The notes under the pieces: generated by a model | What the model was told of the DNA's origin: nothing | What the model saw: the letters and a program-made list of their open reading frames with translations, nothing else | Database searches by the model: none | Part shown: in pieces, positions 41,743 to 49,850 of the stretch | Position numbering within the stretch: the first letter of the stretch is position 1 | Layout of the letters: each line of letters begins with the position of its first letter | Translations under genes and position numbers: made by a program | DNA from: Selenomonas sp. F0473 | GTDB taxonomy: Bacteria > Bacillota > Negativicutes > Selenomonadales > Selenomonadaceae | Length of the DNA stretch: 64,000 nt | Reading direction: 5' to 3' | Assembly (NCBI RefSeq): GCF_000315545.1 | Contig: NZ_JH992902.1 | Location: 1,136,470 to 1,200,469, forward strand

Positions 41743-42120
41743 TTAAACGACTTTAGCGACGAGCGCCTCTTGCAGGACCTTTGAGAAGTTGACGCCCCGC
41801 GCGAGCGCCCTATCGTTGAGCCACGCGGGAATGGTCAGCGTCTTCTTGACGGAGCGCGTGTTTTTCGCCAGATCCGCATCAATGCGAATCAGCGTAGGGT
41901 ACGATGTGTCGGTTGCGGGAATCGACGCCATCGGACGCGGCACGGGGAGCGTATCCCCATGCGCGAGCGATTCGACGATCTCGCATTCAAGCGCCTCTGC
42001 GGCGTCGGAGAGGAGCGCGTCAAGCGTATCGTTGAACGCTTGACAACCAGGCAGGTCGGGGAACTCGAGCCACAGGCCGTCGGGGTCTTCGTGAATAATG
42101 GCGGGGTATATGTACCGCAT
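41743..42120 (-). CDS. hicB: HicB-family antitoxin
   Basis: A 125-residue antitoxin. The N-terminal degenerate RNase H-like HicB domain has YPAIIHEDPDGLWLEFPDLP and GCQAFNDTLDALLSDAAEALE. A C-terminal ribbon-helix-helix segment (KKTLTIPAWLNDRALARGVN, FSKVLQEAL) binds DNA. It should neutralise HicA and repress the operon. The gene follows hicA by 17 bp on the minus strand, the usual hicA-hicB order. ATG at 42120 after GGAGGAAAGAG. Confidence 0.93.
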   Translation of the reverse strand: MRYIYPAIIHEDPDGLWLEFPDLPGCQAFNDTLDALLSDAAEALECEIVESLAHGDTLPVPRPMASIPATDTSYPTLIRIDADLAKNTRSVKKTLTIPAWLNDRALARGVNFSKVLQEALVAKVV

Positions 42121-42137
42121 CTCTTTCCTCCGTTTCG

Positions 42138-42314
42138 TTATTTCAGTCCCGTGCGTTTTAGAATCGCACTCAGCAGGCCGCTCGGAATATCCGCGCCGTG
42201 CACGGGGATAATCTCTGTTTGGGTTCCTTTTCGCAGTTTATGATGGCTGCCTTTGATGTGAACTTCCTGCCATCCGTTTTCCAGCAGAAGTTTCAGCAAA
42301 TCTTTATCCCGCAT
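42138..42314 (-). CDS. hicA: HicA-family mRNA interferase toxin
   Basis: A 58-residue dsRBD-like toxin that cleaves mRNA when HicB is lost. It has the family pattern MRDKDLLKLLLENGWQEV, the catalytic His in IKGSHHKLRK, and LKRTGLK at the C-terminus. The length is typical. The start at 42314 follows GAGAGGTG; an extended frame upstream covers the promoter and is rejected. First gene of the hicAB operon. Confidence 0.93.
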   Translation of the reverse strand: MRDKDLLKLLLENGWQEVHIKGSHHKLRKGTQTEIIPVHGADIPSGLLSAILKRTGLK

Positions 42315-42338
42315 TGCATACACCTCTCGTACAAGCAC

Positions 42339-42367
42339 AGTATAGCACGTATATACGTGTCTGTAAA
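42339..42367 (-). promoter_or_regulatory. hicAB promoter with operator palindrome in the spacer
   Basis: TTTACA (42362-42367) and TATACT (42339-42344) on the minus strand have a 17-bp spacer. That spacer contains the 14-bp perfect palindrome CACGTATATACGTG (42346-42359), a likely HicB operator for autorepression. Confidence 0.7.
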
Positions 42368-42423: not shown

Positions 42424-42452
42424 TGGACGTCGGCGGCGGTCTGCGATATAAT
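42424..42452 (+). promoter_or_regulatory. Predicted promoter of the deacetylase-GT2 operon
   Basis: TGGACG (42424-42429) and TATAAT (42447-42452) have a 17-bp spacer, about 50 bp upstream of the TTG start at 42505. Confidence 0.6.
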
Positions 42453-42504
42453 AAAGGGCAATAATTTTTTGGCAGCGCAGTAGAAACGGCAGGAGTTTTG
42501 GAAC

Positions 42505-43344
42505 TTGAAACGGATGATTGTCAACGCGGATGATTTTGGGCGGCACGCGCTCATCAACCGCGCGGTAGAATGCGGCGTACAGAGCGGCGTGCTGCGCTCG
42601 GCGACGGTGATGGCGGGCGGCGCGGCGTTTGACGATGCGGCGGAGCTCGCGCGCCGGACGCCCGCGCTCGGCGTGGGCGTTCATCTGACGCTCGTCAACG
42701 GCAATCCCGTCCTGCCGGCCGCGGAGATTCCCTCGCTCGTGACAGAGGAGGGCGTCTTCTGCGACAATCATACGCTGTTCGCCGTGCGGCTCCTGCGCGG
42801 GCAGATCAATTTGGACGAGGTGCGCGCGGAACTGGCGGCACAGCTGCGGCGCGTGGAGGCGGCGGGCATCCGGCCGACGCATGCGGACAGCCATCAGCAT
42901 ATGCATGTCCTGCCGGGTGTGATCGACGTTGTGCTCGACCTCTGCGCCGCGGCGGGTATTCCCGCGATGCGCGCGCCGCGCGCGCCGATCTTTGCGGGGC
43001 ATTTCGGCGGCATCGGGCAGCTCGTGGGGCGCGTGGGGCTTTCTGTGCTCGCCCGCCGCGCGGCGGCAAAGGCGCGGCGGTGCGGCATCCGCACGCCCGA
43101 CCGGTTTGCCGGCATCGTTGCGGGCGAGGCGGTCGATACGGCGGCACTCTGCGGAATCGCCGCATCGCTCGGGGAGGGAACGACGGAGGTTATGGTACAT
43201 CCCGGTACGGACAACGCCGTGCTGATCCCGGACTGCCGCTGGGATCATGATTTCGAGGCGGAACTGCATGCCGTCTGCGCCCCCGAGGTGCGCGCGGCGC
43301 TTGCAGACGCGGAGCCCGTAAATTTCCGCGCGCTCGGCGTTTAG
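42505..43344 (+). CDS. YdjC/ChbG/HpnK-family carbohydrate deacetylase
   Basis: A 279-residue metal-dependent deacetylase. The key motif NADDFG has the catalytic and metal-binding aspartates near residues 7-10. The His motif is HADSHQHMHVLPG and the C-terminal motif is VMVHPGT. Family members remove N-acetyl groups from sugars such as chitobiose or hopanoid glucosamine. The start is a TTG (42505), chosen because AGGAG lies 9 bp upstream; the ATG at 42514 would be 18 bp away. It leads a three-gene operon with a GT2 enzyme and a polytopic membrane protein. Confidence 0.88.
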   Translation: MKRMIVNADDFGRHALINRAVECGVQSGVLRSATVMAGGAAFDDAAELARRTPALGVGVHLTLVNGNPVLPAAEIPSLVTEEGVFCDNHTLFAVRLLRGQINLDEVRAELAAQLRRVEAAGIRPTHADSHQHMHVLPGVIDVVLDLCAAAGIPAMRAPRAPIFAGHFGGIGQLVGRVGLSVLARRAAAKARRCGIRTPDRFAGIVAGEAVDTAALCGIAASLGEGTTEVMVHPGTDNAVLIPDCRWDHDFEAELHAVCAPEVRAALADAEPVNFRALGV

Positions 43345-43352
43345 GGGGGAAC

Positions 43353-44318
43353 ATGCGGCACATTACGATCATTGTTCCCTGCTATAACGAGGCGGAGGTT
43401 CTCCCCCGCTTCTACGGCGAGGTGCGGGCGGCCGTCGAAAAAATCGAAGGCTGCGCCTTTTCATTCCTCTTCATCGACGACGGGAGCCGCGACGAGACGC
43501 TTGACGTCATTCGTACGCTTGCGCAGAGCGACGCGACGGTCCGCTATATAAGTTTTACGCGCAATTTCGGCAAGGAGGCCGCGATGATGGCGGGGCTCGA
43601 CTACGCCGAGGGCGACGCGGTCATCCTCATGGACGCGGATCTGCAGCACCCGCCTGCGCTCATCCCGGAGATGGTCGCGCACTGGCGCGCGGGTTTTGAC
43701 GATGTGTGCGCGAAGCGCATCGATCGGAACGACGAACCGCTTCTCAAGCGGACGATGGCGCGCCTCTTTTACCGCTCGATGCGGGCGGTCAGCCGATTCG
43801 GCCTGCAGCGCGACGTGGGCGATTTTCGTCTGCTGGATCGGCGCTGCGTGTCGGCGCTCCGCCTCCTGCGCGAGAATCAGCGCTTTACGAAGGGTCTGTT
43901 CACATGGGTGGGGTTCAAGAAGAAGGAACTCCCGTTTGAGGTGCGGCCGCGCGCGGCGGGGCATACGACGTGGAGTTACCTTTCCCTGCTCTCGCTCGCG
44001 GTGGAGGGAATCACTTCCTTTACGACGGCGCCCCTGCGCCTGACGACGGTGCTCGGGCTCCTCGTCTCGGCGCTCGCCCTCGGCTACATGGTGATCGTGC
44101 TCGCGGACGCGCTGGTCTACGGCGACCCGGTGGCGGGCTACCCGACGCTCATGACGGTGCTGCTCTTCCTCGGCGGGGTGCAGCTCCTCTCGCTCGGCAT
44201 CATCGGCGAGTATCTCGGCCGCGTCTTCACGGAGAGCAAGCGGCGCCCGTGCTACCTCATCGACGAGCGGGACGGGGAAAAATTTGACTACGCGCCGCGG
44301 CGCAGGGAGGCGGAGTAA
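43353..44318 (+). CDS. GT2 polyprenyl-phosphate glycosyltransferase (GtrB/ArnC/DPM1-like)
   Basis: A 321-residue family 2 glycosyltransferase. The nucleotide-sugar motifs are IIVPCYNEAEVLP, IDDGSRDET and MDADLQHPPALIPEM. Two C-terminal membrane helices (TVLGLLVSALALGYMVIVLA; LMTVLLFLGGVQLLSLGIIG) anchor it at the cytoplasmic membrane, the layout of GtrB, ArnC and DPM1. It should transfer a sugar from a nucleotide donor to undecaprenyl phosphate. It starts 8 bp after the deacetylase and its stop overlaps the next ATG (TAATG), so all three proteins are probably made together for lipid-linked sugar modification. Confidence 0.9.
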   Translation: MRHITIIVPCYNEAEVLPRFYGEVRAAVEKIEGCAFSFLFIDDGSRDETLDVIRTLAQSDATVRYISFTRNFGKEAAMMAGLDYAEGDAVILMDADLQHPPALIPEMVAHWRAGFDDVCAKRIDRNDEPLLKRTMARLFYRSMRAVSRFGLQRDVGDFRLLDRRCVSALRLLRENQRFTKGLFTWVGFKKKELPFEVRPRAAGHTTWSYLSLLSLAVEGITSFTTAPLRLTTVLGLLVSALALGYMVIVLADALVYGDPVAGYPTLMTVLLFLGGVQLLSLGIIGEYLGRVFTESKRRPCYLIDERDGEKFDYAPRRREAE

Positions 44319-45973
44319 TGCGGCGAAACGTCCTGGAGACGGTACTGATCGCATGCGGGATCTTCGGTTTTATGCTGGCGCTCAATCATCTCATGCCGAT
44401 CCACCGCGACGACTACGACTATTCGATGATATGGAAGACGGGCATCCACATCGCCTCCCTCGGCGATGTGTTTGATTCGGCGTACCGGCATTACTTCCTG
44501 CACGGCGGGCGGATGCTGACGGTATGCGCACTGATTCTCTTTCTGTGGCTTGGAAAGGGGCTTTTTGACATTGCGAACGCCCTCATGTTCCTCGCCCTCG
44601 CCGTCCTGCTCACGATGCACGCGCGGCGCGATCCTTTCTTTTGGCGGGCCCCGGGGCTCCTCGCCGCGGCGGGCATTCTGCTTTGGCTGGCGCTGCCGCA
44701 TTTCGGCGAGGTTGCGGTCTGGAAGAGCGGCTCGACGGTCTACCTGTGGTCGGCCGTGCCGGCATTTCTCTTCCTCCTGCCGTACAATCTCGGTCTGCGC
44801 GCGTGTGCCGACGGGCGCCGCCCGCGCGTTCCGGGCGGGCCGCTCTCGATGTTCCTGCTCGGCATCTGCGCGGGCTGGTCGGTTGAAAATCTCGCCGTAA
44901 CCGTGGTGCTCGCGGCGGCGGGCGTCTCCTTTTATATCAAGAAGGCGTACAAAACGCTTCCCCTATGGATGCCGGCGGGTACGCTCGGCGCGCTGGTCGG
45001 TCTCATCGGGCTCGTCGCGGCGCCCGGGAATTTCGCCCGCTACGGTGAGCAGGGAACGGGGAAAGGCATTCTGCTCCACATCGGCAATCAGCTCGCGGGA
45101 CAGGGCGAGATGGCGCTCTATCTGCTCCCCGTTCTCCTCATCCTGCTTACGGCATGGCGGCTCTATCGGCGCGCATGTGCGGGACTGCCCGCGGGAGAAA
45201 CGGTACGGCCGGGCATCGGTACGTTCGTCCTCATCGCCGCGCTCCTGCTGCTCGTCTTCTCGCATATGACCTCGGGTTTCGTCGCGCAGACGATCCGTGA
45301 CGCGATCGTATTCCATGTCATGCCGCCGCTCGGCATCGATCGCCCGAAGACGATCCGTCTCTTCACGAATGTGATGAACGGATTCGAAGAGGCGGCGATC
45401 TACTGGTGCACGCTCCTGGTCTTTTACGCGCGGATCAAGCAGACGCTCGGGCTGTCCGCCGCCTCGATTCGCGCCGCGGCGGCGCGTGTCCCCGCGGCGG
45501 AGGCGTTGTGCGCTTTCCCCGCCGCGCGTTATGCGCTCTTTCTGGCGGTTCTCGCCGTCTGCGATAATCTCGTCATGCTCGCGGCGCCGACTTTCCCCGG
45601 GCGGGCGACATTCGGCGCGGCGGCGATGTTCGTGACGGCGGCGCTCGCCGTCCTTCACGATCCTCCCGTACGGACCGCCCTGCGCGCGCCGGCTGCGCGC
45701 GCCATATGCGGGGCAGCGGCGCTGCTCCTCTTTGCCTCTACCGCGGTTCCCGCTCTCTTGATTATGAACGAAACCGCGGATGCGGACGCCGTGCGCGTCG
45801 CTCTGATCAAAGAGGCCGCCGCGCGCGGCGATGCGGTCGTCAATCTGCCGCCCATCGAGCATACGAACCGCGCGCTCCGCCATGTGTATTACGAGGACTG
45901 GTACAACGGCGTCACGCGGGACGGCGCGGAAGAGTACTACGGCGTACAGGAAATCCTTGTGGGCGGAAAATGA
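44318..45973 (+). CDS. Polytopic membrane protein, GT-C-like (DUF6056-type)
   Basis: A 551-residue protein with about ten or more membrane helices. The periplasmic first loop contains HRDDYDYSMIW with an Asp-Asp pair and later WKSGSTVYLW. It resembles DUF6056-type membrane proteins and GT-C sugar transferases that use polyprenyl-phosphate sugar donors, but no catalytic residue can be proven. The C-terminus is soluble (VNLPPIEHTNRALRHVYYED, with EDWYNGVT), probably extracytoplasmic. The TAATG overlap ties its synthesis to the GT2 enzyme. It may transfer the lipid-linked sugar to an envelope acceptor; that is inference from the operon. Confidence 0.65.
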   Translation: MRRNVLETVLIACGIFGFMLALNHLMPIHRDDYDYSMIWKTGIHIASLGDVFDSAYRHYFLHGGRMLTVCALILFLWLGKGLFDIANALMFLALAVLLTMHARRDPFFWRAPGLLAAAGILLWLALPHFGEVAVWKSGSTVYLWSAVPAFLFLLPYNLGLRACADGRRPRVPGGPLSMFLLGICAGWSVENLAVTVVLAAAGVSFYIKKAYKTLPLWMPAGTLGALVGLIGLVAAPGNFARYGEQGTGKGILLHIGNQLAGQGEMALYLLPVLLILLTAWRLYRRACAGLPAGETVRPGIGTFVLIAALLLLVFSHMTSGFVAQTIRDAIVFHVMPPLGIDRPKTIRLFTNVMNGFEEAAIYWCTLLVFYARIKQTLGLSAASIRAAAARVPAAEALCAFPAARYALFLAVLAVCDNLVMLAAPTFPGRATFGAAAMFVTAALAVLHDPPVRTALRAPAARAICGAAALLLFASTAVPALLIMNETADADAVRVALIKEAAARGDAVVNLPPIEHTNRALRHVYYEDWYNGVTRDGAEEYYGVQEILVGGK

Positions 45974-48540: not shown

Positions 48541-48597
48541 TTGATATATATCCCTTTTTCTGATAGAATATCCTTATGAAAGAAGGGATATATATGT
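48541..48597 (+). promoter_or_regulatory. Promoter and operator of the Phd/RelE-type toxin-antitoxin operon
   Basis: TTGATA (48541-48546) and TAGAAT (48564-48569) have a 17-bp spacer. Two 13-bp inverted arms, ATATATATCCCTT (48544-48556) and AAGGGATATATAT (48583-48595), flank the promoter region; the second covers the ribosome site and start codon. This fits cooperative antitoxin/toxin autorepression. Confidence 0.65.
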
Positions 48598-48914
48598 TAC
48601 AGGCGGCGCCGCTCAACAAGACTGTTCCCATCACCGCATTCAACCGCGGCAAGGCGGGGCAAATATTTTCCGAAGTCAAACAATCCGGCATGGCTGTCGT
48701 CATCAAGAACAACACCCCCGAATGCGTGCTGCTCTCTCCGGCACAATACGACGCGCTGCTTGAAGAACTGAGCGACATGCATCTGCTCAAGCTGGCTGAG
48801 GAGCGTCTGCGACATTTGTACCCGCAGGAGACAGTCCCCTTTGAAGAGGTATGTAAAAAGGCGGGCATATCGTACGATGTGCTCGACGATATGGACGAGG
48901 CAGAATTCGAATGA
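48594..48914 (+). CDS. Phd/YefM-family antitoxin
   Basis: A 106-residue antitoxin with a Phd/YefM DNA-binding N-terminus: VPITAFNRGKAGQIFSEVKQ, then GMAVVIKNNTPECVLLSPAQYDAL. The C-terminal tail (YDVLDDMDEAEFE) is acidic and should wrap the toxin. The start at 48594 follows GAAGGGA; the alternative ATG at 48576 would lie at the transcription start and lacks a ribosome site. The stop overlaps the toxin ATG by 4 bp. Confidence 0.85.
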   Translation: MLQAAPLNKTVPITAFNRGKAGQIFSEVKQSGMAVVIKNNTPECVLLSPAQYDALLEELSDMHLLKLAEERLRHLYPQETVPFEEVCKKAGISYDVLDDMDEAEFE

Positions 48915-49237
48915 TATGGGCGGTAGAGTTCCTGCCGGAGGCGGAAGACGATTTCTCACGACTAGACGGCAGCCGGCAGAGGCTTATCGCAAAGGCAATT
49001 GAAAAAGCACGCAAAAATCCTCTGCCAAGTACCGAAGGCGGCTATGGGAAACCCCTAGGAAACCATTCCGTAAGCGCGCTCGCGGAACTGCTGAAAATCA
49101 AGCTGAAACAACAGGGGCTTCGCATCGTTTATCGCCTCCAGCGCACAGATACCCGCATGCTCATCATCGTCATCGGGGTGCGGACAGACGGCGAAGTCTA
49201 TAAAGAGACGCAAAGACGTATCGATAGGCACAAATAA
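48911..49237 (+). CDS. RelE/ParE-superfamily toxin
   Basis: A 108-residue RelE/ParE-fold toxin. It begins IWAVEFLPEAEDDFSRLDGS, has a central basic helix (RQRLIAKAIEKARKNPL) and a beta core LKIKLKQQGLRIVYRLQRTD, then IVIGVRTDGEVYKETQRR. The KxRxxYR pattern fits a RelE-type mRNA interferase or a gyrase-poisoning ParE; the sequence does not decide. It forms an operon with the Phd-like antitoxin (4-bp overlap). A strong terminator follows. Confidence 0.85.
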   Translation: MIWAVEFLPEAEDDFSRLDGSRQRLIAKAIEKARKNPLPSTEGGYGKPLGNHSVSALAELLKIKLKQQGLRIVYRLQRTDTRMLIIVIGVRTDGEVYKETQRRIDRHK

Positions 49238-49290: not shown

Positions 49291-49581
49291 CTACGCCCCG
49301 AATAAATCGCTGTGGGGTCCCGTGGGGGAGAGTGTCAGCACCAACACGTTTTCTGCGATACGATAAACGTGCAGCCAATCAGACGCGATATGGCACTCGC
49401 GGCGGCTCGCCCAACGCCCCGATAGGGCGTGGTCGCGATAATGCGGGGCGAGCGCCTCTCCGCGTGCGAGTTTTGAAATAAGCTCTTCTAAGAGCGCAAT
49501 CTCAAGCCCTCGTTTCATGGCGCGCTTGTAGTCTTTTTTGAACTGCGCGGTCGTCTTGACCGTATACTTTGCGGCCCTCAT
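49291..49581 (-). CDS. yafQ: YafQ-family toxin
   Basis: A 96-residue RelE-superfamily toxin of the YafQ type, a ribosome-dependent mRNA interferase. Its N-terminal TTAQFKKDYKRAMKRG is characteristic. Catalytic-type residues lie in HYRDHALSG and ECHIASDWLHVYRIAENVLV, with LTLSPTGPHSDLFGA at the end. The stop is followed by the shared terminator. The start overlaps the dinJ stop by 4 bp. Confidence 0.9.
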   Translation of the reverse strand: MRAAKYTVKTTAQFKKDYKRAMKRGLEIALLEELISKLARGEALAPHYRDHALSGRWASRRECHIASDWLHVYRIAENVLVLTLSPTGPHSDLFGA

Positions 49582-49850
49582 TTTTTAAGGTCTGCAAAGA
49601 GTTCGTCAAGGTCGGTATACCCTTTGACCGTCGGATCTTTTGCAATCCGCTCCGCCTCCAAGAGGGCGGCGACGGTCTCTCGATTCGGCCGAGCGGTCTT
49701 CACGGCAAAAGGAAGACCGCCCTCGCGCAGGGACTGCCGCACAAAGATATTGAACGCCGTCGTCAGATTCATGCCGAGCTCTGCAAAGAGCGCGTCCGCC
49801 TCTCTCTTGAGGTCGGTATCCATGCGGATGCTGATATTCGTGGTCGCCAT
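49578..49850 (-). CDS. dinJ: RelB/DinJ-family antitoxin
   Basis: A 90-residue antitoxin. The N-terminal ribbon-helix-helix ISIRMDTDLKREADALFAEL, then GMNLTTAFNIFVRQSLREGG binds DNA. The C-terminal part (ETVAALLEAERIAKDPT) neutralises YafQ. It leads the dinJ-yafQ operon. An operator-like palindrome GTAAAT-tgc-ATTTAC lies upstream at 49878-49892. Confidence 0.92.
   Translation of the reverse strand: MATTNISIRMDTDLKREADALFAELGMNLTTAFNIFVRQSLREGGLPFAVKTARPNRETVAALLEAERIAKDPTVKGYTDLDELFADLKK

What the first reader, a model, noticed from the sequence alone, without database searches (positions are those of the whole stretch)
42424..45973. Three-gene deacetylase/GT2/polytopic membrane protein operon resembling Arn or Gtr logic
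A ChbG/HpnK-type deacetylase, an undecaprenyl-phosphate GT2 enzyme and a large GT-C-like membrane protein are translationally linked (8-bp gap, TAATG overlap). The order of activities parallels ArnC-ArnD-ArnT: load an N-acyl sugar on lipid, deacylate it, transfer the aminosugar outside. A deacetylase of the YdjC fold in that role, with a DUF6056-type transferase, would be a new variant of envelope aminosugar modification.
Basis: inference. Interest (0 to 1): 0.62.

Follow-up and report, generated by a model that had tools for sequence, protein, structure and literature searches.

The report
Amino-sugar envelope-decoration operon in Selenomonas
Three neighbouring genes in a Selenomonas-type bacterium look like a small pathway that loads a sugar onto a membrane carrier, strips its acetyl group and attaches the resulting amino-sugar to the outer envelope, using an attaching enzyme from a family of unknown function, and it could explain an old, puzzling report of galactosamine in Selenomonas endotoxin.

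Summary
In detail: a YdjC-type deacetylase (42505-43344), an ArnC/GtrB-like GT2 (43353-44318) and a DUF6056 protein (44318-45973) form one operon (8-bp gap, then TAATG overlap). Neither would-refute condition is met. (1) The DUF6056 model (pLDDT 87, pTM 0.90) is a GT-C fold: its 27 best structural matches (Z 16.7-7.8; ArnT 13.8) are GT-C proteins, the next has Z 6.3. (2) The trio is co-conserved, though not everywhere: YdjC and DUF6056 adjoin in 19 of 81 family genomes, 18 with the GT2 between, and another Negativicutes family has GT2-GtrA-YdjC beside a convergent DUF6056. What appears new is the DUF6056 transferase in LPS-bearing Bacillota. A 1997 report of galactosamine in Selenomonas lipid A, seen only as cited in PMC13339959, fits. 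Sugar and acceptor are inferred.

The parts
42424..42452 (+). Sigma70-like promoter site TGGACG-17-TATAAT ahead of the operon (consensus match only)
   Evidence: 10 of 12 matches
42505..43344 (+). YdjC/HpnK/NaxD-superfamily N-acetyl-sugar deacetylase, 279 aa
   Evidence: PF04794 1.7e-70; HpnK TIGR03473 209.3 bits, below its 232.6 cut-off; solved relative 7vi8 chitooligosaccharide deacetylase 1.1e-21; D9 D10 H60 H126 D128 H130 H132 H134 H232 each kept in at least 86 of 87 relatives
43353..44318 (+). GT2 polyprenyl-phosphate sugar synthase of the ArnC/GtrB/PgfS type, 321 aa
   Evidence: PF00535 6e-34; PgfS model 315.9 bits (cut-off 500) and ArnC model 166.5 bits (cut-off 529), both below cut-off; GtrB sll0501 5ekp 1.6e-81; DxDxQ motif (D94, D96, Q98) invariant in 9 aligned proteins
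44318..45973 (+). DUF6056 polytopic membrane protein, 551 aa, GT-C fold; proposed Und-P-hexosamine transferase
   Evidence: PF19528 2.9e-107; AF2 pLDDT 87.4, pTM 0.90; top 27 structural matches GT-C; H29 R30 D31 D32 Y33 invariant in 27 sequences, the window and 26 of the 33 loci

Best explanation
The operon encodes a NaxD-like amino-sugar decoration pathway. The GT2 enzyme makes undecaprenyl-phosphate-HexNAc on the cytoplasmic side; the YdjC protein removes the acetyl group to give Und-P-hexosamine; a flippase encoded elsewhere turns it over; and DUF6056, a GT-C enzyme, transfers the hexosamine to an envelope acceptor outside, most likely lipid A or the LPS core. Supported by computation here: the families, intact motifs, GT-C fold, operon and co-conservation. 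Inferred: sugar identity (GalNAc to GalN favoured), deacetylation of the lipid-linked sugar, flipping, and the acceptor.
For: Families and motifs. GT-C fold: Pmt4 Z 16.7, STT3 15.8, ArnT 13.8 (364 residues, 5.0 A); drop from 7.8 to 6.3 at the first non-GT-C row. Adjacency in 19 of 81 family genomes (the window plus 18 of 59 fetched YdjC loci), 18 of them with the GT2 in the middle. Family f11: GT2-GtrA-YdjC run convergent with DUF6056 in 3 of 3 fetched genomes (GtrA PF04138 1.4e-21); a fourth, G123, has DUF6056 and YdjC about 350 bp apart on opposite strands. Triad GT2s form one clade, f11 included. All 27 DUF6056-linked YdjC rows fall in one half of the YdjC tree. PMT_2-type protein, GT2 and YdjC stand in that order in 8 loci, which lie on both sides of that tree; PMT_2 confirmed by Pfam in the 3 of them scanned. 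A PMT_2 of this group in the window's own genome is ArnT-like by sequence (5ezm 4.9e-34). The genome has LpxC (3.3e-90) and a single Formyl_trans_C match, so no sign of ArnA. Long-form DUF6056 was found in 2 of 149 phylum genomes, both of the window's family. Precedent NaxD. Galactosamine in lipid A of a Selenomonas strain (Kumada 1997, seen only as cited in PMC13339959).
Against: Linkage is partial: of 33 named loci with DUF6056, 13 have the triad, 7 only GT2, 1 only YdjC, 12 neither, some near contig ends; 9 of 12 long-form loci fetched from the wider class sample have neither partner beside them. YdjC occurs in 86 of 100 class genomes against 27 of 100 for DUF6056, so it also serves other pathways. 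Same-genus genomes G069 and G078 keep YdjC but have no DUF6056 and no triad-type GT2. No flippase in the operon. Foldseek alone gave no E below 0.001 (best ArnT 0.048), and the VIA notes warn that helical models without relatives can reach a best Z of about 14. No PDB chain matched the DUF6056 profile by sequence. None of the eight neighbouring window proteins scanned is an LPS gene. The cited authors read the galactosamine as an unusual backbone, and its strain was not matched to any genome here.
Confidence: 0.62

Rival explanations
1. Gtr-type three-component glycosylation with an un-deacetylated sugar: GT2 plus DUF6056 attach a neutral or N-acetylated sugar, and YdjC is a neighbour serving a different step.
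For: 7 of 33 loci have GT2-DUF6056 without YdjC beside them; the GT2 resembles GtrB/PgfS more than ArnC; some short DUF6056 forms sit beside another GT2 and no YdjC (L098, L102, L105).
Against: Those 7 GT2s (one of them a fragment) nest inside the triad clade, so loss of YdjC looks secondary, and one such genome (G016) has YdjC in a PMT_2-GT2-YdjC run elsewhere (L080; its GT2-DUF6056 locus is L096). GT2-YdjC linkage recurs in three arrangements.
Confidence: 0.2
2. The same donor chemistry, but the acceptor is a surface glycoprotein (for example flagellin) or an exopolysaccharide rather than LPS.
For: PgfS, the best NCBIfam hit of the GT2, works with membrane proteins PgfM1 and PgfM2 on streptococcal surface proteins (PMC5856776 passages); the best structural matches include Pmt4 and STT3, which are protein glycosyltransferases; S. 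sputigena flagella carry O-glycans (PMC13339959).
Against: The interchangeable partner is ArnT-like; the long form was seen only in the window's family in the phylum sample; none of the eight window neighbours scanned is a flagellar or surface-layer gene.
Confidence: 0.13
3. A hopanoid or other lipid-glycoside pathway as in HpnI-HpnK: deacetylation of a glycolipid, with DUF6056 in an unrelated step.
For: HpnK is the best NCBIfam model for the YdjC protein (209.3 bits); HpnK removes the acetyl group from BHT-N-acetylglucosamine made by HpnI (PMC12583986 passages).
Against: The score is below the HpnK cut-off, and no HpnI model is in the GT2's hit list. Hopanoid genes were not searched for in the genome.
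Confidence: 0.04

Closest known systems
Francisella/Acinetobacter NaxD lipid A galactosamine pathway (the partner names FlmF2 and FlmK are recalled)
   Same: YdjC-superfamily deacetylase acting on Und-P-HexNAc before the amino-sugar goes to lipid A (PMC11279074 passages)
   Different: The transferase here is DUF6056, without sequence match to PMT/ArnT; host is an LPS-bearing Bacillota; acceptor unproven. NaxD itself was not aligned here
Arn pathway (ArnC, ArnD, ArnT)
   Same: Order of activities, ArnC-like GT2, GT-C transferase
   Different: Deacetylase is YdjC, whereas ArnD belongs to another family (recalled); no sign of ArnA; DUF6056 has no sequence match to ArnT
Gtr / GtcA three-component glycosylation
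   Same: GtrB-like GT2 plus dedicated GT-C; in family f11 also a GtrA-domain protein
   Different: A deacetylase belongs to the operon; no flippase gene in the window operon
Streptococcal Pgf machinery
   Same: GT2 closest to PgfS in NCBIfam; membrane-protein partners
   Different: Pgf has an epimerase and PMT-family membrane proteins, no deacetylase (PMC5856776 passages)

Membership tests
NaxD-type Und-P-hexosamine pathway | YdjC-superfamily deacetylase with intact conserved His/Asp motifs | tested here: met
NaxD-type Und-P-hexosamine pathway | Linked GT2 that makes Und-P-HexNAc | tested here: inconclusive
   Family and DxDxQ motif met; sugar specificity not shown
NaxD-type Und-P-hexosamine pathway | Deacetylation of Und-P-GalNAc | not testable with these tools
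   needs an enzyme assay
NaxD-type Und-P-hexosamine pathway | Amino-sugar on lipid A | not testable with these tools
   Galactosamine in lipid A of one Selenomonas strain as cited in PMC13339959; strain not tied to a genome here
NaxD itself | Closer in sequence to NaxD than to ChbG or HpnK | not tested
   No NaxD sequence was aligned
GT-C fold glycosyltransferases | GT-C fold over most of the protein | tested here: met
   27 best matches all GT-C, ArnT aligned over 364 and 374 residues; Foldseek E not significant
GT-C fold glycosyltransferases | Acidic residue(s) in the loop after the first helix | tested here: met
   D31 D32 invariant in 27 sequences; DD motif found in 55 of 59 distinct long forms; equivalence to the catalytic site not shown
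ArnT family (PMT_2/PMT) | Sequence match to PMT_2, PMT or ArnT | tested here: not met
   No PMT hit up to E 1; no PDB match for the profile up to E 5
Arn pathway | ArnA-type formyltransferase in the genome | tested here: not met
   One Formyl_trans_C match only, in a 338-aa frame, presumably Fmt
Gtr three-component system | GtrA-type flippase in the operon | tested here: not met
   None in the operon; one GtrA-domain match elsewhere in the genome; present in the f11 loci
HpnK (TIGR03473) | Score above curated cut-off | tested here: not met
   209.3 against 232.6 bits

The most novel reading that the evidence does not exclude
DUF6056 is an unrecognised family of GT-C amino-sugar transferases, and LPS-bearing Bacillota use GT2-YdjC-DUF6056 to decorate lipid A with galactosamine; the galactosamine reported in Selenomonas lipid A in 1997 and read as an odd backbone is this added sugar.
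Probability: 0.35. Interest if true: 0.72.

Novelty: new variant of a known kind. Interest (0 to 1): 0.52.

Why it matters
It gives a concrete, testable function to a family of unknown function, suggests that NaxD-like chemistry and Arn-like division of labour extend to diderm Bacillota with a swapped transferase, and offers a genetic cause for a puzzling sugar in the endotoxin of Selenomonas, a genus whose abundance rises in periodontitis (PMC13339959 Discussion). Amino-sugars on lipid A generally change its charge and peptide sensitivity (established knowledge).

Tried and rejected
Chitin-disaccharide (ChbG) catabolism: the ChbG model scores 130.5 bits against a 227 cut-off, and none of the eight window neighbours scanned is a chitin-use gene. 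Phage seroconversion cassette: 22 stretches matched a pattern in viral contigs but none was confirmed; no plasmid match; two weak partial phage hits, 29.5 and 29.8% identity. Foldseek alone was not decisive for the fold; the VIA second look was. Literature: DUF6056 occurs in 0 papers of the held library, which lacks most subscription journals; a search for GtrB/PgtC-type protein glycosylation gave 0 papers; the eLife Negativicutes paper holds none of the six terms sought; Lgm passages gave no deacetylase detail. Kumada 1997 and Llewellyn 2012 were not read. My first gene caller picks antisense frames in this GC-rich DNA, so contexts were taken from stop-to-stop frames scored against the query proteins and checked by tblastn for 11 loci. 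L003 carries only residues 157-318 of the GT2; it is counted as GT2-only. Rows left out before counts: of 61 YdjC places, 59 were fetched (not the window's own, and not the partial G029:C212); alignment A1 and the model use 26 of the 33 loci; the trees leave out short or identical rows (under 200 aa; under 280 aa, or 120 bits or less). Tree roots are midpoints, for drawing only. The flanks beyond about 36-52 kb of the window were not examined.
Full report
What is there. The window carries three + strand genes in one operon: a YdjC deacetylase (42505-43344), a GT2 (43353-44318) and a DUF6056 membrane protein (44318-45973). The first gap is 8 bases; genes 2 and 3 overlap by one base. The window lies in a 2.07-Mb single-contig genome; the nearest named loci are oral Selenomonas species (that they are oral is recalled).

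The enzymes. The YdjC protein keeps the motifs of a solved deacetylase, and D9, D10, H60, H126, D128, H130, H132, H134 and H232 are each kept in at least 86 of 87 relatives. Its nearest NCBIfam model is HpnK, below the cut-off. The GT2 is closest to GtrB sll0501 and then ArnC among solved proteins and to PgfS in NCBIfam, again below cut-off; it has the DxDxQ motif that PMC10821137 describes as a possible hallmark of polyprenyl-phosphate GT2s (passages).

DUF6056 is a GT-C protein. An AlphaFold2 model from 27 related sequences has pLDDT 87.4 and pTM 0.90. Foldseek ranked ArnT first, but not significantly (E 0.048). In the VIA second look at Foldseek's own candidates, the 27 best rows are all GT-C enzymes or GT-C-fold subunits (that PIG-U is one is recalled): Pmt4 Z 16.7, STT3 15.8, ArnT 13.8 and 13.2, AglB, AftB, DPY19, EmbA, PimE; the first unrelated row has Z 6.3. 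The tool warns that helical models without true relatives can reach a best Z of about 14; the uniform identity of the top rows and the gap below them carry the argument. HRDDY after the first helix is invariant in the alignment, and a DD motif is found in 55 of 59 distinct long forms. In ArnT the first periplasmic loop also holds residues needed for function (PMC5377068 passages). No sequence match to ArnT or PMT was found.

Co-conservation. Among 81 genomes of the family, 48 have DUF6056 and 60 have YdjC. I fetched 59 of the 61 YdjC places. DUF6056 lies beside YdjC on the same strand in 18 of these 59, 17 with the GT2 between, and in the window as well. Of 33 named loci with DUF6056, 13 have the triad, 7 GT2 only, 1 YdjC only, 12 neither. 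In another family of the class (f11), three of three fetched genomes have GT2, a GtrA-domain protein and YdjC in one run, convergent with DUF6056 (GtrA by Pfam in L127). A fourth, G123, has DUF6056 and YdjC adjacent by coordinates. The other 9 of 12 long-form loci fetched from the class sample have no GT2 or YdjC beside them.

Trees. In a tree of 87 YdjC proteins one half (34 rows, support 100/99) holds all 28 rows linked to an LPG_synthase_TM protein and/or a PMTb-type PMT_2; the other 53 rows hold all 27 DUF6056-linked ones, with f11 branching first under a midpoint root. Loci in PMT_2-GT2-YdjC order appear in both halves (3 and 5 rows; order checked in all 8). In the GT2 tree (52 rows, FastTree) triad GT2s form one clade with f11 inside; GT2s next to long-form DUF6056 without YdjC nest in it; those next to short forms do not; and GT2s next to the ArnT-like PMT_2 form a clade of their own. 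So GT2 plus YdjC is combined with two different GT-C families.

The window's own genome also has two GT2-PMT_2 pairs without YdjC beside them, one PMT_2 being ArnT-like (5ezm 4.9e-34). Same-genus genomes G069 and G078 have no DUF6056 and no triad-type GT2 but keep YdjC; in G078 a GT2-PMT_2 pair was seen. G030 has YdjC-DUF6056 without the GT2 between, and its only GT2 match is of the second type (39%). This suggests, as inference, that one deacetylase and one donor can serve both transferases.

Mechanism and acceptor. By the NaxD precedent (PMC11279074 passages) the GT2 makes Und-P-HexNAc, YdjC deacetylates it, and the GT-C transfers the amino-sugar outside. The genome has LpxC and shows no ArnA. 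In a phylum sample of 149 genomes the long DUF6056 was found in two, both of the window's family, in line with an outer-membrane acceptor, although few members of the class are listed in that sample. A 2026 paper reports that Kumada et al. (1997) found significant galactosamine besides glucosamine in lipid A of Selenomonas ATCC 33150 and took it to suggest an atypical backbone (PMC13339959: passages; part 1 of its Discussion; the 1997 paper was not seen). A GalN-transferring triad would explain it; whether that strain has the triad was not checked.

Verdict. A real, recurrent operon; the type of mechanism is well supported, the sugar and acceptor are not shown. The deacetylase part is known from NaxD. 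The DUF6056 transferase is new as far as the held library shows (0 papers with the name).

Noticed in passing
41743-42365, - strand: HicB antitoxin (PF15919 7.2e-10) and HicA toxin (PF07927 3e-15) pair, divergent from the operon.
   Followed up: partly
48576-49237 (+) and 49291-49850 (-): Two further toxin-antitoxin-like pairs; the - strand one has a YafQ toxin (3.9e-31); the + strand toxin-like frame had no Pfam hit, and the antitoxin-like frames were named by eye only.
   Followed up: partly
L136-L155 (20 class loci), e.g. L144, L145, L149; L143 without the LPG protein: A recurrent Negativicutes cluster: YdjC, often an LPG_synthase_TM protein, an epimerase (Pfam-confirmed in L143), and one or two PMT_2 proteins; looks like a second, older sugar-transfer pathway that uses YdjC.
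   Followed up: partly
L115:4546-6968 (own genome C1, about 925-927 kb): ArnT-like PMT_2 and ArnC-like GT2 pair in the window's own genome, with no YdjC beside it and no ArnA found in the genome.
   Followed up: partly
L095, L098, L102, L105, L114: A shorter DUF6056 form (about 450-510 aa), in tandem pairs in L095, L102 and L114; in L098, L102 and L105 beside a different GT2.
   Followed up: no
L019:5824-9423: Two long DUF6056 frames in tandem behind a YdjC-GT2 pair.
   Followed up: no
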